From a virus, in IMG/VR virus record IMGVR_UViG_3300021185_003222, positions 1 to 59,096 of that record: a stretch of DNA of 59,096 nt; one strand, 5' to 3'. This document shows positions 1,806 through 32,356 of this stretch, one piece after another (the first letter of the stretch is position 1; every line of letters starts with the position of its first letter). The notes below the pieces were generated by a model. That model had not been told where the DNA came from. It searched no databases and worked only from the letters and a program-made list of their open reading frames with translations. A program made the position numbers and the translations under genes.

Positions 1806-2027
1806 ATGAAAGAAAGTACTTTGCTAGAAATGCAAAACAAAATTAAAGCTATAACAAATGTGTTGCAGCAATTAATAAACGAACAAACGCACTTAAGAGA
1901 TTTAAGTGTAGGTACATTAGAAGCTTTAAAACTTATGCCAGGTTATGAAAAAGCGATAGAGTTTCTAAAAAAAGAAGTAACTAAAAAAGAAAACGAAGAT
2001 GGAGCTATCGAACAAGATACTAAGTGA
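1806..2027 (+). CDS. hypothetical coiled-coil protein upstream of RNR
   Basis: 73 residues, mainly helical, with heptad-like hydrophobic spacing (LLEMQNKIKAITNVLQQLI) and a charged tail. The ATG follows an A-rich leader with a weak GGAAG purine stretch, one of the few SD-like sequences in the window. The 3' end overlaps the RNR start by 29 bases, so the two are probably co-translated. Function unknown. Confidence 0.55.
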   Translation: MKESTLLEMQNKIKAITNVLQQLINEQTHLRDLSVGTLEALKLMPGYEKAIEFLKKEVTKKENEDGAIEQDTK

Positions 2028-3861
2028 TATAACTGTATATATGAAGTATGCTAAATTTGTACCTGAGTTAAATCGTAGAGAGACTTGGGAAGAGTTAGTT
2101 ACACGTAATAAAAATATGCATATTAAAAAATACCCAAATTTAAAAAATGAAATTAATGAAGCTTATAAAAGCGTGTATAGCAAAAAAATACTACCATCTA
2201 TGCGATCATTACAGTTCGGAGGAAAACCGATTGAAATTAGCCCTAATCGCGTGTATAACTGCGCTTATTTACCAATTGATCACATTGATAGTTTTCACGA
2301 AACAATGTTCTTATTACTTGGAGGAACAGGTGTTGGATACTCTGTGCAAAACCATCACGTAAGTAAAATGCCGCCAGTTAATAAACCTTATGTTAAAAGA
2401 ACTAGAAGGTTTTTAATAGGTGACAGTATCGAAGGTTGGGCTGATGCTATTAAAGTTCTTATGAAGTCCTATATGGGTGATAATAGATCATCTAGCATAC
2501 AGTTTGACTTTTCTGACATTAGACCAAAGGGAGCTCAGTTAGTTACTTCTGGAGGTAAAGCGCCAGGACCTCAACCACTAAAAGAGTGTATACTAAAGAT
2601 TAAAGGTATACTTGATGCTAAAGATGATGGCGTACAATTAACTACAGTTGAAGCCCATGATATAGTTTGCCACATAGCTGACTCAGTCTTGGCTGGTGGT
2701 ATACGTAGAGCTGCTTTAATTAGTTTATTTTCTGCTGAAGATAGCGAGATGATTAGTTGTAAGTCAGGTAGTTGGTGGGAGAAAAACCCACAAAGAGGTA
2801 GAGCTAATAACTCAGCTGTATTAATGAGACATAAAGTAACTCAAGAGTTTTTTATGGATCTGTGGAAACGTGTAGAACTATCAGGATCAGGAGAACCAGG
2901 TATTTACTTTAATAACGATAAAGACTGGGGTACAAACCCTTGTTGTGAAATAGCATTAAGACCTTTCCAATTTTGTAACCTGTGTGAGGTTAATGCTAGT
3001 GACATTGAGTCACAAGATGATTTTAACGATAGAGTTAGAAAAGCAAGCTTCATAGGTACACTACAAGCTGGTTATACTGACTTTCATTATTTAAGAGATA
3101 TATGGAGAGATACGACAGAGAAGGACGCCCTTATAGGTGTGTCAATGACAGGAATCGCGAGTGCCGCTGTGCTGCCGTTGGATATGAAGGCCGCTGCAAG
3201 TATAGTGAAAAGAGAGAATACAAAGACGGCGAAAGCCATTGGTATTAATTCAGCTGCAAGATGCACAACCGTGAAGCCTGCTGGGACGACATCTCTTGCA
3301 TTAGGAACCTCGTCTGGTATTCATGCTTGGCATGCAGATTATTATACGCGTAGAATAAGAGTCGGTAAAAACGAATCTATGTATAAGTATTTGTCAGAAA
3401 AACATCCTGAGTTGATTGAAGATGAGTTTTTTAGACCTCACGACACTGCTGTAATTAGTATACCACAAAAAGCACCTAAGGGTTCTATACTAAGAGACGA
3501 ATCACCTTTTGATTTACTTGAGCGTATAAAAAAAGTAGCTACAGAGTGGGTTAAGCCTGGTCATAGAAAAGGATCTAACACTCACAATGTATCTGCAACT
3601 GTAAGTCTTAAACAAGATGAGTGGGACGCGGCAGGTAAGTGGATGTGGGAGAACAGGGAGCATTACAATGGCTTATCTGTATTACCTTATGATGGAGGTA
3701 CTTATACTCAAGCACCTTTTGAAGATATAAGTAAAGTTAACTATGATATGGCTATGGCTCATCTCAAAGATATTGATCTTAGCAAAATTATAGAAGTTGA
3801 AGATGAAACAGATCTTTCAGGTGAATTAGCTTGTGCAGGAGGAGCATGTGAGATAACATGA
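1999..3861 (+). CDS. nrdJ: class II (adenosylcobalamin-dependent) ribonucleotide reductase
   Basis: 620 residues, the compact monomeric type of the Lactobacillus RTPR family. It reduces ribonucleotides to deoxyribonucleotides with a radical generated from adenosylcobalamin. Visible landmarks are RVYNCAYLP (first active-site Cys), NPCCEIALRP and FCNLCEVN near residues 313-331 (the thiyl-radical Cys region), KPAGTTS near 426-432, and the C-terminal redox pair Cys612/Cys617 in CAGGAC. No separate small subunit is needed, but the host must supply B12. The gene ends in an ATGA overlap with the next ORF. Bases 3121-3300 are far richer in G+C than the rest of the gene (see findings). Confidence 0.93.
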   Translation: MELSNKILSDITVYMKYAKFVPELNRRETWEELVTRNKNMHIKKYPNLKNEINEAYKSVYSKKILPSMRSLQFGGKPIEISPNRVYNCAYLPIDHIDSFHETMFLLLGGTGVGYSVQNHHVSKMPPVNKPYVKRTRRFLIGDSIEGWADAIKVLMKSYMGDNRSSSIQFDFSDIRPKGAQLVTSGGKAPGPQPLKECILKIKGILDAKDDGVQLTTVEAHDIVCHIADSVLAGGIRRAALISLFSAEDSEMISCKSGSWWEKNPQRGRANNSAVLMRHKVTQEFFMDLWKRVELSGSGEPGIYFNNDKDWGTNPCCEIALRPFQFCNLCEVNASDIESQDDFNDRVRKASFIGTLQAGYTDFHYLRDIWRDTTEKDALIGVSMTGIASAAVLPLDMKAAASIVKRENTKTAKAIGINSAARCTTVKPAGTTSLALGTSSGIHAWHADYYTRRIRVGKNESMYKYLSEKHPELIEDEFFRPHDTAVISIPQKAPKGSILRDESPFDLLERIKKVATEWVKPGHRKGSNTHNVSATVSLKQDEWDAAGKWMWENREHYNGLSVLPYDGGTYTQAPFEDISKVNYDMAMAHLKDIDLSKIIEVEDETDLSGELACAGGACEIT

Positions 3862-4160: not shown

Positions 4161-7100
4161 CTATTTTTTATTAGCGTCTTGAATAAGTTTTATTCTGTCT
4201 GCTTCTTTTTTAGCTTTGTTTATTCTGTAAGTTCCATATCCTAGACTTTTAAGCATTTTAACTTGCTCAGCTTTGTTAAGCTTTTTTAAGGTTTCAAAGT
4301 CAGTAGATCCAGATGCTGCTTTTACTCTATTCTTGGATTTGTTTATTTTATTATCTGCTTTTTGTTTATCAGTCATGGCAGGAGCAGTAGGCTCAGACAT
4401 TATATTCCATTTTGGCCAACCAGCCATCATAGCTATACTTTGCCATGTTTCTGTGTCCTCAGCTAAAGCTGCATCTATATTATCGTACTTTTGTAGTAGT
4501 CTATCTAAAGGAATATTAGTTGTAGCACTTATAACTTTAGCACCTGACATCGCAGCTGGGTTATCTAGGCTAAATCCTTTACTATATATTTCTTCTCTTC
4601 TTTTCTTACTATCAAAAGGATAAGCTGCTTGTTTTATTTTATTTATCTTAGAACTAAGTGGTGGTGAAAATTGTGTAAGTTTCCACGCGGCATCAACATA
4701 CTCAGGCCTATCTCTATTAGATCTTTCGTATATATCAAGCAAAAAGTTTTTAGCAACTGATATAGAAGCTCCTCCAATACCTGTACCTCTCAATAAGCCA
4801 TCTAGCATTCCATTCACTGTTCTATTTATTGCTTTTCCGTTGTTCTCAAACGTTTGATCATCATCTGCTGCTATCTTAAACAAAGCGTTTTGAAGACCAT
4901 TAAATATCATATTTTGAACAAAGCCATAGTATATTATTTTACTAACGTTTTCCTTAGCATCTCCTCTTCCATTTTTAAGATCTTGAAAAGCTCTTTTTTG
5001 TATACGAGCATATTGCATAGGTGTATTAGCAAACATAAGTATTAAACGACCAGCATCACTTGATTGCTGACTTGATATTCTACTTGGATCAGCTGATTGC
5101 TGCGATTCTTCAGATTTTTGTCTCCACTCTATTAAAGCTTGCTTTTCAGCTTCAACTAGGGTTTTACCTTCATTTTTAACTAAATCATTTATTCTGTTAC
5201 GATAAAACGTAGCACCGCCAGACGCTATAGCGAAGCTATCAGCATATTGAGTAGGTGCATAACCTTTTTGTAGTATGTACTGTATTCCTGCTTTAAACTT
5301 GTTCTTACTAGTAGAAGCTGCGTCAGCTATTTCACTTTCATTTATGTTAAGCTTAAGACCATTACGTCTATCCATTAAGTAGTCAGAGTTTAATAGTTTA
5401 GTAACGTCTTTCCAATACTGTGGTTGATTTGCTACAGCGGCACCAGCTTTAAGTGGATTATTAAAAGACCAGTTAACATAATTTATATTAGAAATCATCT
5501 GCAAAGCTGCTGATCTAATGTTAAAGAACATTATAGCCGCATTAGATCCGTTAACGTAATCTAGCATTTGATTACTTAATCTATTACCTCCAGCTAGTCT
5601 ATTTTTACCAGCTTTCATTCTAGCTAGTATGTTTTCTAAAGATTCTCTATATTTACTTCCATATATAGCTTCAAGCTTATTTAAGTTTTCTTTACTATAT
5701 ATTTGATCTACATTTGACTGCCACTCTTCTAAATACTTAGATCTTTTACCTGTGTTTATTAAATCTAACAAGTCTGTAGTTATAGTTCCTGCTAACCAAC
5801 TCTCTCCTGGTTTAGCATAACCATCACCTTTTGTAACGCTAAGTATCTGCTCTGCAAAAGTCATTAAATTTGAATCTGATTCAACAACTTTCATTAAGTC
5901 TGCTTTATCAGTTTTGCTAAGCGTTTTGTCTAGCTCTTTACCATAACCTGCTTTTTCAAACAAATAAACTCTAACAGCTTGCTCTTTAGTAAAACCTGTT
6001 TTAGCTTCTTTTCTTAAATCTTTAGGAACATTAAGCTCTTTTTTCAAAGCTTTAAAATCAGTTAATAACTGAACTCTATCTTTTGATAAATTGTCCATAG
6101 CTCTAGAATAAGGATTAATTAAATTTTCCTTGTACCAAGCCATTTGTTTGTCACCTAATTTTCCTTTTGTCAATGTTGGATATATTAAACCAACAAAATC
6201 CTCAGCAGAGTGAGGAATAAAAAATCCAAACTTACCTTTGCTAGCTCCAATAGTTTTAGCTTTGGCAGCTGAATATTCTTTGTAATACTCTATACCTGTT
6301 GATTCTTCTAGTAGCTTATTAAACTCTAAGCTTCTGTTTTCACTATTACTAGCAAATACTTGTTGTGTTTTAGATTTTATATCTAAAGGTTCTAAAGCTT
6401 CTTTAACAGCTTTAACATTAGCCATAGCGTCGTCAGCAAAGAAAAAGTCGTTGTAACCTTCAGCGGCTTTACTAACCAACCATTGCGCTTTAGCTTCACC
6501 TGTTGAATTACCTAAACCAGTTATATTTTCTAATGGTATATCTAATCCTTCAGATTTTAAAAACTCATGTATTGCTTGTTGAGATTCAGGCGCTCTTGCG
6601 GTTAATACAAATACATCGTCTGTACCTCTAGCATCTCTAATCTTTTCAGCAACCTTAAACATAGGGCCTCTCTCACCTTCTCTAACAATGTTAAAGTCAG
6701 TAAAGTCCATAACTGCTCCCTCTTCTATTAAAGACTTGCCGTCTCTTGCAAATTCCTCAGCGTTTAAGACACCTCTTTCATTTTCGTATACTTTAGTCTT
6801 AACTTTATTTACAAAGTCTTTAGGAAGAGGTTTTCCATATTCTATAGTTTCTGTATCTATTTCTATAAATTTATCTCCTAGTTCTTCTCTGTATTTCTTA
6901 ACACTTTCTTGAACAGCTTTTGATGTTTTTTCTACTATAAAACTAGGTAACGATCTTTCTTTTCTAGCTTTGTTTCTAGAAACAGCAGCTTCAGTAGAAG
7001 TTTCTGCATGAACCATAAACACTTCGTAACCTTGCTCTTTAAGTTTGTTAACTTTTTTCATAGTTGCATTATAACTAGCACCTGTCCCGTCTATAATCAT

Positions 7101-10100
7101 ACCTTCTCCAGCTTGTCTGTACTTTTCCATTTTAGCTTCAGCAGCTTTTCTACCAGCAAAACCAATTTTAGATCTTTGGCTTTTCTGCTCTTTGCTATAC
7201 ATACTTTCTGCTTCAGGCAGTCCTACTTTAGCTTTTTCAGCTTCTATAAATATATCTTGATTAACAACTTTCCAACCTTCTCTACCAAGCTCCAAACCTT
7301 TTCCAATGTTTGATTTACCAGATCCAGGTCCACCAATCATAAATATAGCTTTACGTTTAGGTGAAGGTTTTCCAGATGTGTTAGGTCTGTTATAAAATAC
7401 TAAACTTTTACTCTTGGCTAACGTGTCGTCAAAGTCAAAAACTCTTATCTTTTTAGGTTTTTTGTTAGGCTTTCTAGCTAATTCTAATGCTTTATCATTG
7501 TTTTTAGCATTATTTAAGAAATCAACATTAGTTCTAGTATTAGATTCTGAAGCTGCAAAAACAGGATCACTTTTTAAATTGTCTTTAGCTAGCTTCGGGT
7601 TAATGGCTAGCTCAGCAGATTTAGCCCAAGCTTCTCCTTCAACTTTGCCTGTTTTAAAATTATATATAGACCTCATGTTTGGATCATACATAGAAGATTC
7701 ATTGTAGTATCTAGTGCCATCAACAGGTGACAAAACCTCATAACCTGTTCTACGTAAAACACCATCCATTTTGTATGGAATTATATTAACATAAAAGTCT
7801 TCATAAGCTAATTCTAACTCTGTCTTACCTTTTTGATTTAACTCAATCTTGTTTGTACCTTCAATTGTCTTTAAATTATCTTTATTTGAGTATACTTTTA
7901 ATAAATCTAATAACATTTTTTCAGCAGACTTATTATGCTCCCATGTCAAAAGTTTTTCACTTTTACTTTTGTTATCTCTAGGATCAATGTATTTACGGCT
8001 ATTAGTTGTTATTAGTTTTTCACCTTTTAAAGGTATGTATATGCCTCTAACAGGAGCTGCTAATCTAAGAACACTTCCCATACTATTTTTTAAAGCCATC
8101 ATAGCTATACCCATTTGAGCTTCTGGTGATACACCTGACTTAGTGGTAGTTATTTCTCCATTAACGAAAGCTTGAGTTTCGCTTAATATTTGAGTTTCTA
8201 AAAACTTTCTTGCTTCTAAAGCTACTCTATCATACTCCTCAACAAGTTCTTTTACTTTTCCAGATTTATAGTCAGATAATTTAGAATTAATATTTAATCC
8301 AGCCTGTTTAATAAAGGTTTCAGAGTTATGAAAGTTGCTACCACCATATTTCTTTACTTTAAGTTTTTTATCACCCTGAGTTAATGTAGTTTTTTCTAAA
8401 TTAATTCCATATTTATTTATAACACTATTTAATCCAGCTCTCCAATTAGCAGTACCTCCCCAATAAACATGTCTTTTACCTCCTATAGTCGATGAGTTTG
8501 TGTATTGTTCATTAAGAGAAGATAAAACTTCTGCTGCTTTTAGCTTGTCAGTAGAGTTTTCCATGTAGTCACTCCAAGCTGCTTCATCTCTTAATCTTCT
8601 AGCTTTTTGAACATCTGGATCTGTAGACACTTCTTGTAACTCACCTCTTTTTAAACCTAAATAATCTTCGTTTATTCTTTCAAAATCACCTTCTATTATT
8701 TCTTTAGTGTGATCTTTTAAAAACTTTTCAATATCTACCTTGCTTATTTCTTCATATTTTTTTATATTATATTCCACACTAGCCTCTGCTTTTTTAAGGC
8801 CCTTTGCTAAAGCATCTATTATATCGTTTTTATCTTTAGTAGTGTAGAAATCATCAAATAAGTATTTTTTAACAACGCTTCTGATTTGTGTTCTATCTGG
8901 AACACCAGCGTAGTTAACTTTAAAATCTTGAGCTATATCAGATAATTTATTTTCTAAAAAGTCTTTTTGTTTAGGTATATCAAAGTCTCTTAAAGCAGTT
9001 TGAGATGCAGAATAAATGTTTTTAGCTGATCTAAGATCGTTAACTTGATTAGACAAGCCTAGCTCTTGAGCTCTTTCAGAAAATGCTTTTAAAGTCATTT
9101 CTTTAGTTATATATCTTAAAACACCTTTTAACGTTTGAGCTTCACTTTCTCTTTGTGTAAACGAAGCTTCTTTTCTCTTGTCTTTAATACCTATTTTACC
9201 TAAAAAATATTCTTCTGAAAATTTGTTTTTTGTCCATAAAAAATCATTACCAATACGTTGATCTGTTTTAGTAAAGAAGTCTCTTTTTATGTTTCTGTCA
9301 ATACCTGTTGGCTGGTTAATTTTTCCAGACGATGCAGATATATTAATATAGTTATCTCCTTTTCTAGACTTTGGATGTTTAATTCTTTCTGTTGTATTAC
9401 CTTTGTAAGCATATTCTCTCAATACAGGAACATTGTTGTAAGGCATTAAATCAATAGCTTTTGCAAAATTAGGATTTAAACCTCCACCCATCATCCATCG
9501 TTGCGCAACTTTTGCTTCAGGTATATTTAAGTTTTTCTTTGGATCAGTTATAGCTTCCTCTCTAAAACTAAAGTTAGGATCTTTTAATACTTCTTTACCA
9601 AAGGTTGTTAAATCATTTTTCAACTCTTTAGCTGCTATATATGGAATATCTTTTATTAAATTATCAAAAGTACCTAAATAAGCGTCCATTGTTTCAGGAA
9701 CAAAAGGATATTTACCTTCGTCAGTTATTTTTTTCTTTATCTCGTTAGATAGCTCAAACCTGCTTTCTGGACTTAACATACCTAAAGAGTTAGTTCTACC
9801 AGCTCCAAAAGGTTCAGCAGATCTTTCAACTCTTAATGATAATTCAGCTTGACCTTCTCCTCTACCTGCTTTGTCTGATAAAGCTTTCTTTTCGTAAGCT
9901 TTAAAAACATCTAATTTCTTTTTGTTTAGGTTTAATGGATTAAATATCCAACCAGCTAAACCACCTTTTTCACCTTTTATATTTTGAGGATCCCAACTTC
10001 TAACTACATCGTTAATTTTATCTCTTACGTCTAATATGAATTGATCTTTACTAAACGCTTCACCTTGTATTATAATCTTATCACCACTGATTTTCATTTT

Positions 10101-13100
10101 ATCTTTACCAGTGCCTTCTATAATCATAGCGTCAAACTTACCGCTATTAACTAGTTTAACGCCATCCTTAACTCTACCAGCGTCCCACTCTTCTTTTGTT
10201 AACTCAATGTTATTATTCTTGTCTCTTGTTATTTTTAAAGCTTTATCAACATCTTCATTAAAAGATCTTTGTTCTGTTTTAGATTTAAAATAATTAGGAA
10301 CTTCAACATCTGTTTGTTTCTCAGACTCTTTACTAAAAAGATCTAATAAACCTTGATCTATTTTTTTATTTTTAGCTTGATTAAAAAATCTGTTTACAAC
10401 TCTGCCAATGTCTTCTCCAGTTGATAAACCTAGTTCTTTATTAAATATATTAGAAATTCTTTCTTTAACTCCTTTTATTTGTTTTACTTGATTTAGTTTA
10501 AGAGCATCTAGAAATATATTTAATTTTTCCTCGTACAAAGCATCTATAGATTTATCCTTACTATATTGATCTGTAAATCTTTTGTTTATAAGCTTTTGAT
10601 AGTGTTCAGGTAATGAGTTAACAAAAGAGTCTATAATTTCTCTACCTTTTTCACCTTTTAATGAGTTCTTTAAAAAAGCATGAAATAATTCGTGACTAGC
10701 AGCACTAGTAGCTCCTGTTCCTATCTCTCCTCCACCGCCAAGTATTCTTTGTTTGTTTATATATATTTTATTTTCTTTAGGGCTATATAAAGCATCTGAT
10801 TTTTCGTTATTTTTAAATGTTTTCTTCCATTCATCCATAGATGGTACCTCCACAACCTCTTTAACACCAAAACTTTCAGCTATAGATTTAGTAAAATCTA
10901 AATCAGACTTGTAGTCTACAGCCTCTACCTCTTTCATTTTGCCTATATTCTCCTGTTGCTTACCTGCTAGCTCTTTTTGTTCAGCTTTTAAAGTATTTAA
11001 CTTACCATCAAGTAAGCTCTTTTCAGTCATTACCTCAGCTCTTCTTTCTACAGGTACTCCATCAGACTTAGCTGTTTCATTATCAAGCTTTATTTGTTCA
11101 ATTTGATTCTCTACGGTAGCTATCTCCTTAGCCACTTCAAATTCTTTTTGTCTATCTTCTATAAAGCTTTTTTTAATATTAGGATCAGATATTTTTCTAG
11201 CCTGCATGCCAGTTACTTGACCTTGATTAACTAGAGCATTTAGTTGATTAAATTGAAAGCTTTTTGGATCTATACCCATCGCATCGGCGATAATTAAAGA
11301 TGTATTTCTATTTGTGTTGTTTTTACCTTTAATACCTTCTGTCTTTAGATTATCAAGAAGATCCATTTCTTTTAATGTCAACTTCTCATTACTAACAAGT
11401 TTTCTACCTATTATCTCAATTTGAGTTTGAGTAGATTTCATTTTGTTATCTCTTTCAGACATCCATGTTTGAGCGTCTGAAACGTCCTTGTTCATCTCAG
11501 CTATACCTTTAGCTGCTTCAAGCTCTGACAACTCCTTAGAACTTAATTCTTTGCCTTCTGTCTTTGATTTAAATGCTTTTTCTATAGTTGCATAATCATT
11601 AACTCCACTTAATCCTAATGTTTTATTAGCTTTTCTTACAGCTCCACTATTAGTTTCCATACCTTTAACTAATCTTTCTATAGATTTAACAGGTCTTCCA
11701 CCAATATGTAGTAATCCAAATTGTATTATTTCTTTAGCCCAAGCTCTACCACTAGTTAGATTTTTATATATTTCATCTAACCTATCTTTCTCTTTTGGAT
11801 CATTCCAGTCACCAACTAAAACTTCACCTGCTGATATTGCTTTTGATATTGTAGTTGGTATTGTACCAGCTACAGTTGCTCCAGCTACAGTCTTTAATCC
11901 AGGAATAGTAGAAAACGCTCTAATTATTTCCGAACCTCCACGCATATAGTTGGTTAATATTTTTTTAGATATTTTTTGAGTTATAACGTTACCTACTCCA
12001 AAAAAGAAACCATGCTCAACAGGCATTTTTTCTTCACCCATTTCCTCTAGAAAGCCATTAGCTATATTCATCTTTATCATTTCAGCAGATCCATGAGTAA
12101 TAAAATCTATAGTGCCGTTGAATACAGTTGAACCACCACCTCTAAAACTATTTTTCATTAGCTGGCCAAAAGGACCTCTTAAATATTTTAATGTAGGAGC
12201 TACGCCTGGTATTGTTTCTGCTAGTGCAAAAGCAGCTACCATCTTTAATAAACCTGGTGCTTCATCTACTAATTCTTCTCCAAAACTTTTTTCAATTACA
12301 TCATTCTTTAGAACATCTGGATCTATTTTTAAACCTGAAGCTTTTATTACAGCTCTAGTATTTTCAGCTAGCATTTCGGGATTTTTACCAGCACCTATAA
12401 AATCACCAACTTCAGACCAGTTTTCTGTACCTACAAAAGATCCTACTATTTGTGTATAATCATAGAAATTTGTTTCTTCAGCTGTCATAGCGTTAACGTT
12501 AAGCTTTAAAGCTCTATTTAAAACAGCTATATCATCTATTAAGGCATCGTGCTTTTTAGCTAAAGCTATTGAGTTACCGTCACTTCTTGTATTTTCAACC
12601 TCTGACAATATTTTTTTAAGACCTTTAGGCACAACTCCAGTTTTATTAAAATAGCTTATATACTTAGCATAATCAGCCTTAGACCTTTCAGACATGCTGA
12701 AACCGTCACCAATAGAAGAAGCTTCTAAATCACCAGACAGGTCACTCATTTCAGAGTATATACCTTTTAATTCATAAAACTTTTTTCTTCTTAGATCTTC
12801 TAAGTAATCTACAGTTGGTCTTTCTTCAAAGTTTAAAATGCTTTTAGCTTTTTCTGTAATTTCTTTATCACCTATTTTTTGTTCTTCTGTTGCTTTTGTA
12901 ATATCTATTAAAGTGCCAGTTTTATTATCATATATTTTTTCACCTAAGTTTAATTCTTTTTTTACATTTTGAAGATCTTTATCAGCTTCGTTTATAAAAG
13001 CTTCGTATTTTTTAGCTTCTTTTACATTTCCAGAATTTAAAAGTGTCTGCTGTTTAGCTCTTAAGCTATTAATAGAATTTTCAAATTTATAAACCTTAGC

Positions 13101-14258
13101 CTCGTTCTCATTTAAATTAGAGTAGAATAAAGCATTAAGCTGAGAGTCAACAAATCCTTTTTGAGCATTAGAGTCTCCATCAAATATTTTTAAATCTTTA
13201 TTAGCCTCATTAGTTGCTATAATATTCATATAAGCATCAGAAGCCTTATCATCAAAAACTTTTGAAGGATCTACTATTATGTATCCTTTTTTAGATATTT
13301 CTTCACTGTAAGCTCCAGGCATTGATAAATAAGATAAATCTTTACCGTTTACATTTCTAGGTATAACAATTAAATCACTATCAGAACCAACCGTCATGGG
13401 AGCAGAACTGTAACTAGAAGCTATATTATCAACAAAATCACTATGATTCTTAATTAATGAAGCGTCTATGTCAAGAAGTTTAGGAAGAACATCCTTAGCA
13501 TTTTCTTTGTTAACACTCTTTAATGGGTTAACACCTTTTTCTCTGTATTCTTCAGCTTTCTTGTATGACTCTTCGTTGTTTTTGTTAATATTTAGTTTAA
13601 TAGAGTTTTCAGGAACCTTGTGAGTGTAAGATTTTCTGTCTTGATAATCCACATTGGATTCTAAAACTATATCTATAGGGTTTTCTGTTACTAAGCTTTT
13701 TAAATTAGAACTAGTATTTTTATTTACAAAACCTACAAAGGTTTCATATGCTTTAGCATTTCCTTGACCTTTATTTCTATTGTATTCTGTGTTTAATCTT
13801 ATAGATTTACCTTGGCCAGTTGTTTTGTCAGTTACATATATTTGATCATACATATAACCACTTTGACCTATCTGTTCTTCAAACTCATAGTCGTCCCCAT
13901 ATTTTTCTTCTAAAACAGGTATTAAATCTTGTTCTTCAATATTATCAAAAGAGTTTAATTCTATATCTTTAAATTTTTTAATATTAGATTCTAGTTCATC
14001 TTCTTTCTTTACAGGCTTCACTTCGCTAACAAGTTCTTCAGCATCAACTATAGGTTCTTTAACTGATAAACCGTAAGTGTTTTTTATTAAATCTAGTTTG
14101 TTATCGTCGACACCTTCAGGGTCATACTTAGAGTATAAGTCATTTATTAATAAATCATAATCGTCACCATACGTTTCATTAATTAAATTAATTTTATCTT
14201 GGTCAATTTCTTGACCAGCTTTTTTTGAATAAAAATCTATTAAAAATTCATTTATCAT
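4161..14258 (-). CDS. giant multidomain (polyvalent) virion protein with metallopeptidase, HAD phosphatase and P-loop kinase motifs
   Basis: 3365 residues, the largest gene here. The N-terminus has two copies of a short helical motif (KINLINETYGDDYD and KLDLIKNTYG). Around 690-830 there are long Ala/Gly-rich hydrophobic stretches. HELFH near residue 1189 is a zinc-metallopeptidase signature. Near 2276, VFDFDDTLA is HAD motif I. It is followed near 2308 by a Walker A, GGPGSGKS, and zeta-toxin/polynucleotide-kinase-like sequence, after which the HAD resumes with LTAR (~2553) and ADD (~2608). The ~650-residue C-terminus, rich in aromatic and helical segments, resembles the end domain of large phage proteins called polyvalent proteins. 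It is last in the virion operon, after the internal proteins, so probably packaged and injected. No DxDxD RNA-polymerase motif was seen. Confidence 0.85.
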   Translation of the reverse strand: MINEFLIDFYSKKAGQEIDQDKINLINETYGDDYDLLINDLYSKYDPEGVDDNKLDLIKNTYGLSVKEPIVDAEELVSEVKPVKKEDELESNIKKFKDIELNSFDNIEEQDLIPVLEEKYGDDYEFEEQIGQSGYMYDQIYVTDKTTGQGKSIRLNTEYNRNKGQGNAKAYETFVGFVNKNTSSNLKSLVTENPIDIVLESNVDYQDRKSYTHKVPENSIKLNINKNNEESYKKAEEYREKGVNPLKSVNKENAKDVLPKLLDIDASLIKNHSDFVDNIASSYSSAPMTVGSDSDLIVIPRNVNGKDLSYLSMPGAYSEEISKKGYIIVDPSKVFDDKASDAYMNIIATNEANKDLKIFDGDSNAQKGFVDSQLNALFYSNLNENEAKVYKFENSINSLRAKQQTLLNSGNVKEAKKYEAFINEADKDLQNVKKELNLGEKIYDNKTGTLIDITKATEEQKIGDKEITEKAKSILNFEERPTVDYLEDLRRKKFYELKGIYSEMSDLSGDLEASSIGDGFSMSERSKADYAKYISYFNKTGVVPKGLKKILSEVENTRSDGNSIALAKKHDALIDDIAVLNRALKLNVNAMTAEETNFYDYTQIVGSFVGTENWSEVGDFIGAGKNPEMLAENTRAVIKASGLKIDPDVLKNDVIEKSFGEELVDEAPGLLKMVAAFALAETIPGVAPTLKYLRGPFGQLMKNSFRGGGSTVFNGTIDFITHGSAEMIKMNIANGFLEEMGEEKMPVEHGFFFGVGNVITQKISKKILTNYMRGGSEIIRAFSTIPGLKTVAGATVAGTIPTTISKAISAGEVLVGDWNDPKEKDRLDEIYKNLTSGRAWAKEIIQFGLLHIGGRPVKSIERLVKGMETNSGAVRKANKTLGLSGVNDYATIEKAFKSKTEGKELSSKELSELEAAKGIAEMNKDVSDAQTWMSERDNKMKSTQTQIEIIGRKLVSNEKLTLKEMDLLDNLKTEGIKGKNNTNRNTSLIIADAMGIDPKSFQFNQLNALVNQGQVTGMQARKISDPNIKKSFIEDRQKEFEVAKEIATVENQIEQIKLDNETAKSDGVPVERRAEVMTEKSLLDGKLNTLKAEQKELAGKQQENIGKMKEVEAVDYKSDLDFTKSIAESFGVKEVVEVPSMDEWKKTFKNNEKSDALYSPKENKIYINKQRILGGGGEIGTGATSAASHELFHAFLKNSLKGEKGREIIDSFVNSLPEHYQKLINKRFTDQYSKDKSIDALYEEKLNIFLDALKLNQVKQIKGVKERISNIFNKELGLSTGEDIGRVVNRFFNQAKNKKIDQGLLDLFSKESEKQTDVEVPNYFKSKTEQRSFNEDVDKALKITRDKNNNIELTKEEWDAGRVKDGVKLVNSGKFDAMIIEGTGKDKMKISGDKIIIQGEAFSKDQFILDVRDKINDVVRSWDPQNIKGEKGGLAGWIFNPLNLNKKKLDVFKAYEKKALSDKAGRGEGQAELSLRVERSAEPFGAGRTNSLGMLSPESRFELSNEIKKKITDEGKYPFVPETMDAYLGTFDNLIKDIPYIAAKELKNDLTTFGKEVLKDPNFSFREEAITDPKKNLNIPEAKVAQRWMMGGGLNPNFAKAIDLMPYNNVPVLREYAYKGNTTERIKHPKSRKGDNYINISASSGKINQPTGIDRNIKRDFFTKTDQRIGNDFLWTKNKFSEEYFLGKIGIKDKRKEASFTQRESEAQTLKGVLRYITKEMTLKAFSERAQELGLSNQVNDLRSAKNIYSASQTALRDFDIPKQKDFLENKLSDIAQDFKVNYAGVPDRTQIRSVVKKYLFDDFYTTKDKNDIIDALAKGLKKAEASVEYNIKKYEEISKVDIEKFLKDHTKEIIEGDFERINEDYLGLKRGELQEVSTDPDVQKARRLRDEAAWSDYMENSTDKLKAAEVLSSLNEQYTNSSTIGGKRHVYWGGTANWRAGLNSVINKYGINLEKTTLTQGDKKLKVKKYGGSNFHNSETFIKQAGLNINSKLSDYKSGKVKELVEEYDRVALEARKFLETQILSETQAFVNGEITTTKSGVSPEAQMGIAMMALKNSMGSVLRLAAPVRGIYIPLKGEKLITTNSRKYIDPRDNKSKSEKLLTWEHNKSAEKMLLDLLKVYSNKDNLKTIEGTNKIELNQKGKTELELAYEDFYVNIIPYKMDGVLRRTGYEVLSPVDGTRYYNESSMYDPNMRSIYNFKTGKVEGEAWAKSAELAINPKLAKDNLKSDPVFAASESNTRTNVDFLNNAKNNDKALELARKPNKKPKKIRVFDFDDTLAKSKSLVFYNRPNTSGKPSPKRKAIFMIGGPGSGKSNIGKGLELGREGWKVVNQDIFIEAEKAKVGLPEAESMYSKEQKSQRSKIGFAGRKAAEAKMEKYRQAGEGMIIDGTGASYNATMKKVNKLKEQGYEVFMVHAETSTEAAVSRNKARKERSLPSFIVEKTSKAVQESVKKYREELGDKFIEIDTETIEYGKPLPKDFVNKVKTKVYENERGVLNAEEFARDGKSLIEEGAVMDFTDFNIVREGERGPMFKVAEKIRDARGTDDVFVLTARAPESQQAIHEFLKSEGLDIPLENITGLGNSTGEAKAQWLVSKAAEGYNDFFFADDAMANVKAVKEALEPLDIKSKTQQVFASNSENRSLEFNKLLEESTGIEYYKEYSAAKAKTIGASKGKFGFFIPHSAEDFVGLIYPTLTKGKLGDKQMAWYKENLINPYSRAMDNLSKDRVQLLTDFKALKKELNVPKDLRKEAKTGFTKEQAVRVYLFEKAGYGKELDKTLSKTDKADLMKVVESDSNLMTFAEQILSVTKGDGYAKPGESWLAGTITTDLLDLINTGKRSKYLEEWQSNVDQIYSKENLNKLEAIYGSKYRESLENILARMKAGKNRLAGGNRLSNQMLDYVNGSNAAIMFFNIRSAALQMISNINYVNWSFNNPLKAGAAVANQPQYWKDVTKLLNSDYLMDRRNGLKLNINESEIADAASTSKNKFKAGIQYILQKGYAPTQYADSFAIASGGATFYRNRINDLVKNEGKTLVEAEKQALIEWRQKSEESQQSADPSRISSQQSSDAGRLILMFANTPMQYARIQKRAFQDLKNGRGDAKENVSKIIYYGFVQNMIFNGLQNALFKIAADDDQTFENNGKAINRTVNGMLDGLLRGTGIGGASISVAKNFLLDIYERSNRDRPEYVDAAWKLTQFSPPLSSKINKIKQAAYPFDSKKRREEIYSKGFSLDNPAAMSGAKVISATTNIPLDRLLQKYDNIDAALAEDTETWQSIAMMAGWPKWNIMSEPTAPAMTDKQKADNKINKSKNRVKAASGSTDFETLKKLNKAEQVKMLKSLGYGTYRINKAKKEADRIKLIQDANKK

Positions 14259-16557: not shown

Positions 16558-18528
16558 TTAATTTGATGAAATAACTATTTCAGAACCTATAGAAAATAAT
16601 TCTTTAGTCCCTCCGTAATTAGTTGATGAATCTGTTTTCAATGTTATAATTGAGTAAAAACCTTTTATTCCAGAAGAATTATTACCAAAAACAACTTCTC
16701 CTGGTTTAGGTCCAGAAATATTTTTCAAGTTAGAAAAGTACTTGTTTTCTTTTCTATCAAATCCAGCTCTTAATATCTGCGTGTTAACTGGTAGTGTAGA
16801 TGGATACTCTACAACGGTAGGTGGATCTGTACTTTGGTCAATTGTAAAACCTCCTTCGTAATAGCTTTTAACGCTACTAGCTATATCACTACTAGATATG
16901 TTAGCTGGTAAAAGAGGATCGTATGAAAGTACTCTTGAATCAACACCAGTTGTGCTAGAATACATCATTGATACTTCCCAACCATTTGAGCCTTCGTAGT
17001 TTATAGTTTTAAAGTTTTTAACCATATGAGGGTTAGCGTTTAGTATGCTTGTAATATTACTATCACTTGTTACTTTGTAAAATTCCCCTCTTTTTGATGT
17101 ATCTGAATAATGTTGAAATAAACCAATTGTTCCATATGTCTTAGGATCAACAGGTTTTTCACCATCAATTGTTTCTTGTATAACGCTAGTAGAGTAGAAC
17201 TTGTTTTTAACACTAAACATTTGATCTGGATTATAAGTAAAGAAGCTTACCCAACCTTTTATTTTCTCATCAAAGTTTAAAGTATAAAAACTAGTTCTTA
17301 AACCTTTAAATTCTCTTTTACCTCCTTCAGTGCTTGTCCAAGTCGTTTGTTGTAAATAATATTTTTTTAACGATAATGTATAGCATTTGTTGTGTGCATC
17401 CCAAGAGCCTAAAACTTTATCTTTTACTATAGCTCTAAATCCTACTCCAGTAGTCATTGCGGAAGTAACAATTATTTCTGAGTTTAGTACAACTCTTACA
17501 TTGTTACCAACTCTAGAAAGCGATGAAATACATGTTTGTGCAAAAGTTGATCCATTAGTATCTTGGATTATCATTCCAGGACAAAGCGTTGTCCATTGAT
17601 TTCCAGTGTCTATTTCAATATCAAAATAAGTAGCATTATCACCTACAGCGGCTACACTGTTATCAGCTTTATACCAAACAGGAGCACCTACGTATTTTAA
17701 GTCAATACTTCTGTACTCTTGATTTAATTCACCTAATTCATCTCTAAACCAGTCAAACATACCATATTCAGATATTTCTGTTATACCATCTCTAGATAAT
17801 CTTATTATAGCATTTCTATTTTTATCAGCATAGTATTTTCTAAAACTATGATTAGCAAAGCTTTCAGGAAACTTACTATTACCATAGTCACCAGCGTAAG
17901 GGGTGACCGGACCTATAACAACTTTACCAGCTGTAGTTACTTGTCCGCCTTCAGCTGTGTATATAACGTCTTTATCTATTAAAGCTTGACTACTTTTGTT
18001 TTCTTGAAGTATTAGTAAGTTGCCATCATCAGAGTGTATTTTCTGAATAGAACCATATTCTGGAGATACAGTCCTACTAATGTCTTCACCTACATTAAAT
18101 ACGTTTGTTTTGTTTACGTTAGTTCTATTATTTAAAAGTCCTGAGTATATTAAAGATGAAGATCTTCTCTGTGTAGAAGCATCGCTGTCAACTAAGTAAG
18201 CTTTAACACCTTGCCCAACCATATCGTTATTGTAACCTCCTTTTATTCTTGATTCTTCAAACGACCATCCTAAACCATTCATAAACCAGTTATCAGCCGG
18301 ATTAGAGTTTAAGTTGAATATATTTGTAGGAAATGGAGGGTAACCAGCTGGATCCCAAGGGAAGCCAAAGAAACCACCAATTGGACCAGCTTCATATATT
18401 TGAGGTATAGGATCAGCAGTTTCGTCCCAGTCTGGCGTTGGCTTTACGGTGTACACTTTCTCTCCTCTTGTCGGAACTTTCTTCGCAACAAAGGTGTTAA
18501 AATACTTTACTTCTAATATATAACTCAT
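16558..18528 (-). CDS. tail nozzle/stabilisation protein, distal part
   Basis: 656 residues, beta-rich with few helices. It contains segments I associate with crAss-like stabilisation or muzzle proteins: GSWDAHNKCYTLSL, FDEKIKGWVSFFTYNPDQMF and RLSRDGITEISEYGMFDWFRD. It begins two bases after the 1211-residue gene. Together they may do the job of one long nozzle protein that forms the lower tail barrel and gate. An independent receptor-contact protein is the alternative. Confidence 0.65.
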   Translation of the reverse strand: MSYILEVKYFNTFVAKKVPTRGEKVYTVKPTPDWDETADPIPQIYEAGPIGGFFGFPWDPAGYPPFPTNIFNLNSNPADNWFMNGLGWSFEESRIKGGYNNDMVGQGVKAYLVDSDASTQRRSSSLIYSGLLNNRTNVNKTNVFNVGEDISRTVSPEYGSIQKIHSDDGNLLILQENKSSQALIDKDVIYTAEGGQVTTAGKVVIGPVTPYAGDYGNSKFPESFANHSFRKYYADKNRNAIIRLSRDGITEISEYGMFDWFRDELGELNQEYRSIDLKYVGAPVWYKADNSVAAVGDNATYFDIEIDTGNQWTTLCPGMIIQDTNGSTFAQTCISSLSRVGNNVRVVLNSEIIVTSAMTTGVGFRAIVKDKVLGSWDAHNKCYTLSLKKYYLQQTTWTSTEGGKREFKGLRTSFYTLNFDEKIKGWVSFFTYNPDQMFSVKNKFYSTSVIQETIDGEKPVDPKTYGTIGLFQHYSDTSKRGEFYKVTSDSNITSILNANPHMVKNFKTINYEGSNGWEVSMMYSSTTGVDSRVLSYDPLLPANISSSDIASSVKSYYEGGFTIDQSTDPPTVVEYPSTLPVNTQILRAGFDRKENKYFSNLKNISGPKPGEVVFGNNSSGIKGFYSIITLKTDSSTNYGGTKELFSIGSEIVISSN

Positions 18529-27724: not shown

Positions 27725-30139
27725 TTATCTAGGCATAAACTGCTCTAGACCAAACCCACCCATATTGTCGTTACCAGCGGATTCAAAGTTCTTTGGTAAT
27801 AAATCATTTTTTCTTTGATCTATTAACTCAGACTGTTGTGTTGCTTGTATTTTAGTTCGTTCGTCTTTACGATCCTCAATTTCTTTTACTTTATCTTTTT
27901 CTTGACCTTGCTTTGTCTGAGCTAATTGTATGTTATATTGGAACTCCTGCTCCATTAATTTCATTTTTAACTGAGACTCTTCTCTCATTTTAGCTGTAGC
28001 AAATTCAGATTTCATTTTTTCTAATTGTATACTTTGCTCAGTTAGCACTTGTTGTTTTTGAGTTTCAGCCAATGCTGTTTGCTCTGCTAGCTGTGCGTTT
28101 GCTTGTGCTTGTGCTTGTATGTTAGCTTGTTGAGCTTGTTGATCTCTATTAGACTTCTGCTTTCTTTTAAGCTTTAACATTTGATTAGCAAGCTTTAAAT
28201 TTCTTACTTGCCTAATGTCTATTGCATCTTCTAAGTCTATTCCACCACTCTGTAATGCTACTTGAATATTTTGTTCTAGTTGAGCTTTTTCCTCTTCGTC
28301 TGGTTCTAGCTCTAAATATATACCAAAGTCTCTTAAATGTAAAGAATCAATATCAGCTAGCGTACCCACATTATAGCTACTTATACTATACTTTAAACTT
28401 TCATTTGTTAATGAAAACCTTAAACTATCAGCTGCTCTTAAAGCTATGTTTTCACAAGATCTAAGTGTTAAATATAAACTGGAATTTAATATGTGTCTTG
28501 TAGCTATGTTTGAGTTTTGAGCTGCAAGTTTTTGAAGACCAACTAGTGACTGCTTGTCAGGAACAGAAGCATCTCTTGCTTCGTTTAAGCCCGTCACGTC
28601 TCTTATCATTTGTAAGTAATATTGGTAAGTTTGTATTAATGCATTTATTTTACCCATACCATTTGAGGTAGAAAGTTCTTGTATTGGAACTTTACCTGGG
28701 TTCATGCTACCATCTTGGGTCATTGATCTACCAACTATACTACCAGTTTGAAAATACATATTTAAAGCTTCAGCTGGGTTATAACTAGTGCCATTACCTA
28801 AATCAACTTCTGCTAGTCCATCTACGTCCATATAAACACCATCTGGAACCATTCTAGATAAAACTTGTTGTAGTTTTAAATGTGTTATTTGAACCATGTC
28901 TGCAAAACCAGTAACTCTACTAACTGTAGATTCAATCCTGCCTTTATACATTTTAGGAGCAACAATGCTGTAGTTCATATTAACTTTTACAGTATTTGAA
29001 AAGGGTCTAGTCATATTTTCAGACATTTGCCAGTTCAACATTTTATCGTGTCCAAGTATTTTAGCACCACTATATAAAACCTCTATTGATCTAAAAGCTT
29101 TTTCAAAAGATTCGTTTTCAGGTGGATTAAAATCATCTCCTTTTTCTAGTGATTTCTCAAGACCTTGCGCTGTTTGTTTTATTTTAAAAACTTGATTAGT
29201 ATAAGTTTTGTATTCAAAATATAAAATTTGAACAGTATCATCACTAGTTCTATCGCTATGATTTCTTCCATAACTATTAGATGGATACTTCTGTATTTCT
29301 TCAAGTTCTTGACCAGTCAAGTAAGGAAATTGCTTTTTTAACTCTGGTAAAGTAACAGATTTTACTTCTCCAACGTAGTATAAGTCTTCAAAATTAGGGT
29401 CATCAGTATAAGAATAAACTAAATTAGTAGGATCAACGTACTCAACTTTTATACCTTCCGATCTATTAAAACTTGTCTTAACAGCAGCGATACCAAGTAT
29501 TGTTAAATCTTCAACTATTCTTTTCTTTGTTAATTTATATTTGTTTCTAGTTAAAGTATTGTTTATTAACTCTTCTTCTGCTATTTCTATAGATTCTTTA
29601 TAATCTAACTGCATATGTAGATCAAGTTCTTGTTGATTCTCTGGAAGTGCTTCTGGCTTGTCAGTATTAAAAACATCTATATTAGCAGTTTGCTTAAGTT
29701 TCATTAACAGTTCTTTAGCCTGCATATCTCTTAGTAATTTTTCAGCGTATCCAGTTCTTTTTCTAAGTGAAGCCGGGTCTTGAGCATAAGCTTTTATTTC
29801 ATAATCTTTAGAAGATATGCCATTTACTAATATGTCTACAAATTTTGGTATTATTGGAATAGGTTTCCAGTCTAAATTTAAATAAGATAAATCACCATTG
29901 ATAGATAGTTCGTCTTTATACTTCTGTATTGACTGTTCTCCTCTAGCGTATAATCTAAGTCTATGAAAGTTATTATAATTAGTTCTAAACCTATCGTTCA
30001 TTCCAACGCCAGAGTCTACTCTAAACCATTCTCCTTCTATAGCTCTAGCTACTCTTAGGCCATAGTCCATACTATTTTTCTCCTCGTTACTAACGACTTG
30101 ACTAGGAAATGAACTGTTGAAATTTGTGTTTATCTGCAT
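27725..30139 (-). CDS. portal protein
   Basis: 804 residues, directly after TerL with no gap, as usual for portal genes. The body (residues 1-620) has the portal-like pattern of a wing/stem with conserved segments such as YVDPTNLVYSY and MIRDVTGLNEARDAS. The last ~170 residues are Gln/Ala/Lys-rich coiled coil, corresponding to the barrel that projects into the capsid. It forms the dodecameric vertex through which DNA is packaged and ejected. Confidence 0.85.
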   Translation of the reverse strand: MQINTNFNSSFPSQVVSNEEKNSMDYGLRVARAIEGEWFRVDSGVGMNDRFRTNYNNFHRLRLYARGEQSIQKYKDELSINGDLSYLNLDWKPIPIIPKFVDILVNGISSKDYEIKAYAQDPASLRKRTGYAEKLLRDMQAKELLMKLKQTANIDVFNTDKPEALPENQQELDLHMQLDYKESIEIAEEELINNTLTRNKYKLTKKRIVEDLTILGIAAVKTSFNRSEGIKVEYVDPTNLVYSYTDDPNFEDLYYVGEVKSVTLPELKKQFPYLTGQELEEIQKYPSNSYGRNHSDRTSDDTVQILYFEYKTYTNQVFKIKQTAQGLEKSLEKGDDFNPPENESFEKAFRSIEVLYSGAKILGHDKMLNWQMSENMTRPFSNTVKVNMNYSIVAPKMYKGRIESTVSRVTGFADMVQITHLKLQQVLSRMVPDGVYMDVDGLAEVDLGNGTSYNPAEALNMYFQTGSIVGRSMTQDGSMNPGKVPIQELSTSNGMGKINALIQTYQYYLQMIRDVTGLNEARDASVPDKQSLVGLQKLAAQNSNIATRHILNSSLYLTLRSCENIALRAADSLRFSLTNESLKYSISSYNVGTLADIDSLHLRDFGIYLELEPDEEEKAQLEQNIQVALQSGGIDLEDAIDIRQVRNLKLANQMLKLKRKQKSNRDQQAQQANIQAQAQANAQLAEQTALAETQKQQVLTEQSIQLEKMKSEFATAKMREESQLKMKLMEQEFQYNIQLAQTKQGQEKDKVKEIEDRKDERTKIQATQQSELIDQRKNDLLPKNFESAGNDNMGGFGLEQFMPR

Positions 30140-32356
30140 TTATATTATTTTTGAATAATAACCGTCATTGTCATATCTTTTTATACCTAAATTGATAGAC
30201 TTTTTAGTTCTCTTATTGACTGGTGTATACTTATTTTTATTACAAGCCATAATGGCTAAACCAGAACTTATTGAAGCATCATGCTTTGTTCTATTGTTTA
30301 TGTCAAACATAGCCCAATCTTCTAAAGTTTTTTGGAAATACATATCGCCGTGTAAATCCTCTCTTAAGCCAACATGCTCTTCTATGTAAGCTTCAATAGC
30401 TGCGGCATGTGCTTGTTTAATATCTTGACTAGTGTTAGGAATTCCACCTATTTCTTTTTCAGTTGTGGAAAGCTTGTTCCAAACTTTATCAGGTCTGTTA
30501 ATACTAAAACCTCTGTAACCTCTTCTTTTTAAGTAATACAATAAACGAGGTTTGTTGTTTTCACAAAGTATTGGCATGCTATAAAAGTGTAAAGCCATTA
30601 AAACATCTTCAAAAAACATTTCAGCTGTTTGTGGCCTAGCTATATATTCTAAAAAAAAGTGATTAGCTGGAGCTTCTTCCATACTAAACTTTGTTAATCC
30701 ATGAAGTGCTCCTTTACTTCCGCGACCGTCAACAGTACCGCTAATATCATAAGAGTCACAACCAAAAGCTCCAATGTGTTCGCTGCCTGGATATTTAATT
30801 CCATTTTTAATAATAATTTTATTTTGCAAATTTAAATCAGGCACCCAAGAAACCAAAAACCTACCATTTTTATTTGGATTAAATACAACTTTTTCATCTT
30901 GTATAGCCCAAGAAAAACTACCTTTAGTGACGTTCATTGTGTTGTCAAACTCTTGGTTATAATCTATTTGCTGATAAATTTTTGTTAAGTTGAATAAGCT
31001 ATTTTTAGTTTCGTCTCTAAAAGCATGTTGTTCAGTTCTTGGAAACTGTCTATAGTATTCGTTTAAACTGTCTTGATCTTCTTTAAGTCCGTCAACTTCA
31101 TTTTCCCAGTGTTCAATAACTCCTGTTGTAATGTCGTAGCCATCAACTCCTTTGACTGGAGTTTTGCTTCTAACGAATACAGGTAATCCATAAGTATCGA
31201 TGAATCCTTCGTAGTTCCACTCCATAGGAATGAACAGGCTATAGAGCCCAGAAGATGTTTGTCCGTTTCTATTTCTTTTAGCAACGTCAGAAGCGTAGTA
31301 TAATTTTTTGAAGTTGTCTCCACCTTTGTCTAAAGCGTTTGAGGTTGATCCCATCATACATTTTCCTACTATTCTTTTACCTAGCCTTAATGTAGTTTTT
31401 GTAACCCTCCAGTTGTTTAATATATTATCAGGTCTTTCCCATTTACCACTTTCATCATGAGCTAATAATTTTAGCTTTTCACCATCATAAGAGTTGTCAC
31501 CTGTATTTTTCCAGTCAATAGTTGTATCAAGTCCATCTAGTTCTCTAAGCTGCTCATTTGATTCAAGCTTTCTTCTAGTAAGCTTTGATGCCGGAACACG
31601 ATATGCCAGTTCCGTTTTCGGCCTATCCATACCGTCTTGAATCGGTTTAAAGAAGAACGGGTAGTTAACTGATATGGGTACAACTTTATCCGTGAACATT
31701 TTTTTGGCATCTGCACCAGACTTGGAAAGTATTCCAAACCTAGCATCGGAAGATATTGTAGCTTGGTTGACAAGTTCTGCGCTTGACATAAAAGAGAATC
31801 CAGATCGTCTGTTTTTGAGGTAGCACATACCATAACACCTAACATCTGCTTTACATGCTTCCCAGAATATAAAGAAGAGCCTGTTTGATTCTCTAAAATC
31901 CGGTGCTCCAATATCGATTTTTGACCATTGGAGGTACATGTAATGAGTACCAGTAATGTAAGTAGCCAAGCCGTTATTGTAAAACCAATAACCATTTTCT
32001 CTTCTTTTGAATTCTTCGTCGATATAGTCATACCATTTTTCTTTAAAATCTGATGGGTATTCCTCCCAATCAAATCTACTTTTAATTTTACTTAATTCTT
32101 TTGGATACTCTTTTTTTTCCCAGTGTTGTTCAGCTTTTTTTTCGCTTCGTTTAAACGGTTCATCTGCTGTTGGTAGAGCAATGCGGAGACCTTGTATTTC
32201 AATGATTTGTCCAATTTTTCCAGTTTTACTTATTACTATAAAATCATAATCAGAGTTATAACCATACTCCCACTTTTTATATCTGTTGTTCTTAGCTAAT
32301 ATCTTAGGATTTACAACGTCCTCAATCTCTTTACAAAGAGTTTGATAATAACTCAC
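30140..32356 (-). CDS. terL: terminase large subunit
   Basis: 738 residues, typical of crAss-like TerL. The ATPase part has a degenerate Walker A (KNRRSGFSF, near residue 185) and a Walker B with catalytic Glu in LKLLAHDESG (~300). The RNase H-like nuclease starts at GAFGCDSYDISGTVDGRGSK (~531), which holds the metal-binding Asp residues. It powers DNA translocation into the prohead and cuts the concatemer. The start overlaps the small upstream gene by four bases. Bases 31561-31800 are richer in G+C than the flanks. Confidence 0.92.
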   Translation of the reverse strand: MSYYQTLCKEIEDVVNPKILAKNNRYKKWEYGYNSDYDFIVISKTGKIGQIIEIQGLRIALPTADEPFKRSEKKAEQHWEKKEYPKELSKIKSRFDWEEYPSDFKEKWYDYIDEEFKRRENGYWFYNNGLATYITGTHYMYLQWSKIDIGAPDFRESNRLFFIFWEACKADVRCYGMCYLKNRRSGFSFMSSAELVNQATISSDARFGILSKSGADAKKMFTDKVVPISVNYPFFFKPIQDGMDRPKTELAYRVPASKLTRRKLESNEQLRELDGLDTTIDWKNTGDNSYDGEKLKLLAHDESGKWERPDNILNNWRVTKTTLRLGKRIVGKCMMGSTSNALDKGGDNFKKLYYASDVAKRNRNGQTSSGLYSLFIPMEWNYEGFIDTYGLPVFVRSKTPVKGVDGYDITTGVIEHWENEVDGLKEDQDSLNEYYRQFPRTEQHAFRDETKNSLFNLTKIYQQIDYNQEFDNTMNVTKGSFSWAIQDEKVVFNPNKNGRFLVSWVPDLNLQNKIIIKNGIKYPGSEHIGAFGCDSYDISGTVDGRGSKGALHGLTKFSMEEAPANHFFLEYIARPQTAEMFFEDVLMALHFYSMPILCENNKPRLLYYLKRRGYRGFSINRPDKVWNKLSTTEKEIGGIPNTSQDIKQAHAAAIEAYIEEHVGLREDLHGDMYFQKTLEDWAMFDINNRTKHDASISSGLAIMACNKNKYTPVNKRTKKSINLGIKRYDNDGYYSKII

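What the first reader, a model, noticed from the sequence alone, without database searches (positions are those of the whole stretch)
6300..7460. P-loop kinase inserted inside a HAD phosphatase in a giant injected protein
In the 3365-residue protein, HAD motif I (DFDDTL) is separated from motifs II and IV (LTAR, ADD) by about 270 residues that contain GGPGSGKS and a zeta-toxin/PNK-like kinase. Kinase plus phosphatase is the activity pair of T4 Pnk, which repairs RNA ends cut by host anticodon nucleases. Delivered with the genome, such a module could act before any phage gene is expressed, for example as a first-line counter-defence. I recall similar stretches in other marine phage giants, so the arrangement may be widespread but functionally unexplored.
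Basis: partly seen in the sequence, partly recalled or inferred. Interest (0 to 1): 0.62.

Follow-up and report, generated by a model that had tools for sequence, protein, structure and literature searches.

The report
Kinase nested in phage virion-protein phosphatase
A marine virus of bacteria makes a giant protein, probably carried in the virus particle, in which a second enzyme (a kinase) is inserted into the loop of a phosphatase; close relatives carry the phosphatase without the insert, so the kinase looks like a swappable add-on, and several tests speak against the RNA-repair role first proposed for it.

Summary
The 3365-aa ORF (4161-14258, minus) holds a HAD phosphatase interrupted after motif I by a ~200-aa zeta-toxin/PNK-type P-loop kinase. 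AlphaFold2 (pLDDT 84.6) places the kinase between the two strands of the HAD flap hairpin, where C1 caps sit. About 30 contigs share this nested module. A larger set of homologous giants has the same HAD with an empty hairpin; a few have the kinase alone, or elsewhere in the chain. Catalytic motifs are intact in 101 of 101 HADs and across the kinases, and the kinase is under purifying selection. Near-isogenic pairs (87-88% DNA identity on both sides) differ by the kinase, and the tree of the flanking C-terminus needs at least 12 changes of the nested state. The kinase is therefore an exchangeable cassette on a resident phosphatase, not half of an obligate T4-Pnk-like pair. The Pnk reading is weakened: no RNA ligase in the (fragmentary) records tested, no PNKP-phosphatase match for this HAD, one T4 kinase residue missing. 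Delivery in the virion is likely from synteny and muzzle/cargo context but not shown. Closest known kind: phage polyvalent proteins. New variant; substrate unknown.

The parts
4161..14258 (-). giant protein, 3365 aa, last gene of the structural cluster (polyvalent-type, probable virion cargo protein)
   Evidence: ORF; syntenic with the last, giant gene of the structural cluster in phi38:1, phi18:3, elemo, ctfjg026 and Panino
7383..7457 (-). HAD phosphatase, first segment (aa 2268-2292): beta-1 with motif I DFDDTL and first strand of the flap hairpin
7419..7436 (-). HAD motif I DFDDTL
   Evidence: DxDDT in 101 of 101 family members
6789..7361 (-). inserted P-loop kinase (aa 2300-2490), zeta-toxin/PNK/AAA_33 type
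   Evidence: Pfam, PDB profile search, AlphaFold2 and Foldseek
7311..7334 (-). Walker A GGPGSGKS
   Evidence: GGPGxGK invariant in the 18-row kinase alignment A7
7254..7265 (-). VNQD, Asp aligned with T4 Pnk Asp35
7080..7094 (-). IDGTG, aligned with zeta toxin VIEGTG
6954..6977 (-). RNKARKER lid motif (RNxxRxxR), as in CthPnkp kinase
6357..6782 (-). HAD phosphatase, second segment (aa 2493-2634): second flap strand, motifs II-IV
   Evidence: kinase-less relatives L234/L239 align from window 6767 downward
6594..6605 (-). HAD motif II LTAR
6489..6491 (-). HAD motif III Lys (aa 2590)
6429..6440 (-). HAD motif IV FADD
10680..10694 (-). HELFH (HExxH) motif of a possible zincin-like peptidase domain upstream of the module
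   Evidence: an HExxH precedes the HAD in 92 of 100 family giants
16558..18528 (-). muzzle-like tail protein (context)
   Evidence: PF25729 crAss_MUZ_C 1.9e-7; phrog_14478 virion structural protein
27725..30139 (-). portal protein (context)
   Evidence: phrog_6547 7e-150
30140..32356 (-). terminase large subunit (context)
   Evidence: phrog_6681 4e-167

Best explanation
The gene encodes a polyvalent-type giant protein of an uncultured podovirus related to phages of Flavobacteriia, most likely stored in the virion and ejected ahead of or with the DNA. Its resident enzyme is a HAD phosphohydrolase found across this giant family. In this phage and about 30 relatives a separately folding zeta/PNK-type ATP-dependent kinase sits in the tip of the HAD flap hairpin, the C1-cap position, leaving the catalytic residues of both enzymes intact. 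The kinase is an optional, recombining accessory. Most likely the HAD removes phosphate from a host nucleotide or nucleic-acid-related substrate early in infection, and the kinase phosphorylates a hydroxyl on a related or different target, broadening the effector repertoire against particular hosts or defences. Shown: anatomy, intact catalytic residues, purifying selection, repeated gain/loss or exchange. Inferred: catalysis, delivery, substrate class, counter-defence role.
For: Nested anatomy with an exact empty-site family. AlphaFold2: kinase between strands 24-30 and 231-237 of the module, i.e. the flap hairpin; the HAD-only model has the uninterrupted hairpin 24-28/34-38. Fold hits to zeta toxin, T4 Pnk and CthPnkp for the kinase; HAD enzymes for the HAD, only marginally significant. 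Motifs conserved in 101 of 101 HADs and across kinases. Kinase dN/dS 0.025-0.28. Near-isogenic pairs L004/L056 (709 versus 112 nt between flanks of 87% and 88%) and L124/L113 (620 versus 14 nt). At least 12 supported changes of state on the C-terminal tree. All giant kinases form one clade, including kinase-only and displaced ones. Late-gene synteny, muzzle protein and MS/MS-annotated positional counterpart. HExxH motif upstream in 92 of 100 giants, matching the polyvalent-protein theme (PMC5512222).
Against: No direct proof that this giant is in virions. The cultured relatives' giants lack both this HAD and this kinase, so their proteomics does not cover the module. The one significant homology to a cultured giant is a C-terminal stretch of Gundel gp074 (135 columns by profile). 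No substrate evidence for either enzyme. Domain orientation in the model is uncertain (pTM 0.67).
Confidence: 0.55

Rival explanations
1. T4-Pnk-like end healing: the kinase phosphorylates 5'-OH and the HAD removes 3' or 2',3'-cyclic phosphate on RNA (or DNA) ends cut by host defence nucleases, delivered with the genome.
For: Foldseek aligns the module with T4 Pnk and Pnkp1 over some 350-370 columns, though with large rmsd; the kinase profile finds T4 Pnk, E 1.8e-8 in the T4 genome; RNxxRxxR lid as in CthPnkp; of the 50 listed HAD-only fold hits the highest TMq, 0.51, is Pnkp1.
Against: HAD not matched by the PNKP-phosphatase model PF25109, which finds T4 Pnk at 201 bits; the HAD profile finds nothing in the T4 genome and only a 31-residue motif-I stretch of T4 Pnk; T4 Arg38 position is Ile; no RNA ligase in the nested-module records, which are fragments; the HAD usually lacks the kinase and kinase-only giants exist.
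Confidence: 0.2
2. Zeta-toxin-like sugar-nucleotide kinase: phosphorylates UDP-GlcNAc or a similar precursor, weakening or remodelling the cell wall during entry, as proposed for zeta-like kinases in polyvalent proteins; the HAD is an independent phosphatase.
For: Top PDB sequence and fold hits are zeta toxins; IDGTG aligned with zeta VIEGTG; a 47%-identical database relative is named UDP-N-acetylglucosamine kinase; Iyer et al. [quoted passage not shown]
Against: The lid region aligns with PNK rather than zeta; the kinase is frequently absent from close relatives, so it is not needed for entry. An antitoxin-like partner was not looked for.
Confidence: 0.15
3. The kinase is a passenger: an inert or selfish insertion tolerated at a permissive hairpin, with the HAD the only functional enzyme.
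For: Patchy presence and a permissive site; L108 carries an unrelated ~43-aa insert there.
Against: Kinase dN/dS well below 1 in all pairs with a defined value, and invariant catalytic residues.
Confidence: 0.07

Closest known systems
Phage polyvalent proteins (Iyer et al. 2017, PMC5512222)
   Same: Giant multidomain late-gene protein with disparate enzymes, an HExxH motif upstream and a zeta-like kinase; predicted to be injected
   Different: A term search of that paper found no HAD phosphatase and no kinase nested in one; here the HExxH region was not tested by profile
T4 polynucleotide kinase-phosphatase (Pnk/PseT) and bacterial Pnkp1
   Same: P-loop kinase plus HAD phosphatase in one polypeptide; kinase detectably homologous
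   Different: T4 domains are in tandem, here nested; HAD not PNKP-type by PF25109; Arg38 missing; no RNA ligase partner found; domains separable in evolution
Zeta toxin / PezT (UDP-GlcNAc kinase)
   Same: Best Pfam and PDB matches of the kinase
   Different: Different lid motif; embedded in a giant protein rather than a toxin-antitoxin pair
crAss-like phage cargo proteins ejected through the muzzle (PMC10172136)
   Same: Muzzle-like protein in the cluster; large protein downstream of it
   Different: Homology of this giant to the crAss001 cargo proteins was not tested directly
Stand-alone zeta/PNK-like kinases of marine T4-like phages (HTVC008M, Melnitz)
   Same: Same kinase family, 34-39% identity
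   Different: Small separate genes, no HAD, no giant

Membership tests
HAD superfamily phosphohydrolase | motif I DxDxT, II T/S, III K, IV DD | tested here: met
   101 of 101 family members keep motifs I, II and IV; the motif III Lys is in 100 as AK and in L116 as SK
HAD superfamily phosphohydrolase | HAD Rossmannoid fold with flap hairpin | tested here: met
   AlphaFold2 models; HAD enzymes prominent among the best PDB hits, but at E 1e-3 to 5e-2, so fold support is moderate
PNKP-type phosphatase | match to HAD_PNKP model PF25109 | tested here: not met
   no giant HAD matches in 13 virus records, T4 Pnk 201 bits as control
Zeta/PNK/AAA_33 P-loop kinase | Walker A, catalytic Asp, lid Arg, family profile | tested here: met
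Polynucleotide 5'-kinase | T4 residues K15, S16, D35, R38, D85, R126 (list from own knowledge) | tested here: not met
   K15, S16, D35 and R126 aligned; R38 is Ile; D85 ambiguous by one position
Polynucleotide 5'-kinase | activity on 5'-OH ends | not testable with these tools
   needs enzyme assay
Zeta toxin | UDP-GlcNAc kinase activity | not testable with these tools
   needs enzyme assay
Zeta toxin | paired epsilon-type antitoxin | not tested
   no search for an antitoxin was made
Phage polyvalent protein | disparate catalytic domains in one giant chain, beside late virion genes | tested here: met
Phage polyvalent protein | zincin-like metallopeptidase domain | tested here: inconclusive
   HExxH motif only, 92 of 100 giants; no Pfam match
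Phage polyvalent protein | packaged and injected | not testable with these tools
   only a positional counterpart, phi18:3 gp123, is annotated from MS/MS

The most novel reading that the evidence does not exclude
The kinase acts as a mobile cap domain of the HAD: sitting on the flap hairpin in the C1-cap position, it gates or retargets the phosphatase, and together they form a single switchable kinase-phosphatase, gained and lost between near-identical phages to match host or defence type.
Probability: 0.25. Interest if true: 0.72.

Novelty: new variant of a known kind. Interest (0 to 1): 0.5.

Why it matters
It shows an enzyme plugged into the loop of another enzyme inside a probable virion cargo protein, with natural near-isogenic pairs that differ by the plug. 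That makes the role of accessory enzymes in phage entry proteins directly testable, and it corrects the tempting reading as a T4-type RNA-repair enzyme.

Tried and rejected
Pnk-type repair unit: tested through RNA ligase families, PF25109 and residue mapping; not upheld, though not excluded. The first PF09511 search had a silent control and was repeated with T4 and Atu_ph07 ringing. HAD profile against PDB sequences gave only chance matches. HAD profile against cultured relatives found nothing; that search had no positive control of its own. Direct homology of the giant's C-terminus to the phi38:1, phi18:3, elemo, ctfjg026 and Panino giants was not detected by profile; only Gundel. A single insertion followed by simple vertical inheritance does not fit the C-terminal tree, although recombination of the module could produce the same count; both trees were quick searches without bootstraps. 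Most of the '?' class was a pattern artefact (motif IV followed by H or V) and was resolved. A literature search for the T4 residue list found no paper, so that list rests on knowledge. A search for the genome paper of the Cellulophaga phages failed on a term and was not repeated.

Full report
The minus-strand ORF 4161-14258 is 3365 aa, with HAD motif I at aa 2275, Walker A at aa 2309, motif II at aa 2552 and motif IV at aa 2607. Pfam gives Zeta_toxin 4.5e-12 and AAA_33 9e-12 for aa 2298-2483. The window is an IMG/VR virus record of 59,096 bases.

Surroundings. Terminase, portal and virion structural proteins lie upstream in the same direction, followed by a muzzle-like protein, two more genes, and the giant. 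The portal is 42-50% identical to those of ctfjg026, Maribacter phage Panino and Flavobacterium elemo phages; Cellulophaga and Tenacibaculum phages also match. In these the structural cluster also has a giant gene at its end; in phi18:3 it is annotated from MS/MS proteomics. Sequence homology is weak: only a C-terminal stretch matches Gundel gp074 (E 2e-4 by BLAST; profile E 2.3e-8 with silent reversed controls), and Gundel gp074 in turn matches phi18:3 gp123 in a different region. The cultured relatives lack this HAD and this kinase, apart from a marginal partial kinase hit in phi38:1 outside the giant. Virion location is therefore inferred.

The module. Homologous giants fall into HAD with nested kinase, HAD alone, and kinase alone. 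The span from motif I to the motif II strand is 75-79 residues without and 273-278 with the kinase. The kinase replaces the turn of a hairpin shortly after motif I. AlphaFold2 agrees: strands 24-30 and 231-237 flank the kinase, and the HAD-only protein has an uninterrupted hairpin there. That insertion in the flap hairpin is the C1-cap position is from general knowledge of HAD enzymes. Foldseek gives zeta toxin, T4 Pnk and CthPnkp for the nested model, and HAD enzymes at marginal E-values for the HAD alone.

Distribution. A scan with the nested module brought the nested form to about 30 contigs, counting the window and two MAG contigs; some are close copies of each other.

Function is retained. 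Motifs I, II and IV are intact in 101 of 101 HADs. The kinase GGPGxGK, the Asp aligned with T4 Asp35, the DxTG loop and the RNxxRxxR positions are invariant in an 18-row alignment. Pairwise dN/dS is 0.025-0.28 for the kinase, with one pair saturated at synonymous sites, and 0.027-0.22 for the HAD.

The kinase moves. L004 and L056 (without) share 86.7% and 88.1% DNA identity on the two sides, with 709 versus 112 nt between. L124 and L113 (without) share 82% and 93%, with 620 versus 14 nt between. The window's closest C-terminal relatives, L234 and L239, have the HAD without the kinase and align at 80-82% from window 6767 downward. On the tree of the region after the HAD the nested state needs at least 12 changes, all forced by supported branches (139 rows; 4 in the first 90 rows). 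These may be gains, losses or recombination. All kinases in giants form one clade in the kinase tree, including two giants in which the kinase lies about 1000 aa upstream of an intact HAD.

What it does. The pairing is not obligate, so the T4 Pnk analogy is not required. It also fails specific tests: PF25109, RNA ligase (the records are mostly fragments, so absence is weak) and Arg38 (the list of essential T4 residues is from knowledge). The kinase remains a relative of both zeta toxin and PNK, so 5'-end or sugar-nucleotide phosphorylation is still possible. The frame that fits best is the polyvalent protein of Iyer et al. 2017 (PMC5512222): late-gene giants with disparate enzymes, zincin-like peptidases and, in their survey, zeta-like kinases. 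Here an HExxH motif precedes the HAD in 92 of 100 giants. The muzzle and cargo ejection model of a crassvirus (PMC10172136) gives a plausible delivery route.

Verdict: a new variant of a known kind, with an unusually clean set of natural with/without pairs; interest moderate because substrate and delivery are open.

Noticed in passing
window 56362-56811 (+): Separate 149-aa ORF matching HAD_PNKP PF25109 (28.5 bits, just over cut-off): a stand-alone PNKP-type phosphatase candidate unlike the giant's HAD
   Followed up: partly
window 1999-3861 (+): Ribonucleotide reductase with a match to the insertion domain of B12-dependent (class II) enzymes
   Followed up: no
window 41810-43354 (-): GroEL-like chaperonin (Pfam 1e-51), also present in cultured relatives
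   Followed up: no
window 1-59096: No tRNA genes found, whereas Panino carries many and a tmRNA
   Followed up: no
L242 and L259: Kinase located about 1000 aa upstream of an intact, un-nested HAD in the same giant, just after an HExxH region
   Followed up: yes
L108: About 43 extra residues, not a kinase, in the same HAD hairpin
   Followed up: no
L023 and L024: HAD reading frames end soon after motif I; real or sequencing error not determined
   Followed up: no
L281, L282, L286: Module relatives in contigs of one Aliivibrio MAG; probably phage sequence binned with it, host not shown
   Followed up: no
L027 and L029: Stand-alone kinase genes in T4-like marine phages; in Melnitz close to baseplate and tail-tube genes
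   Followed up: no
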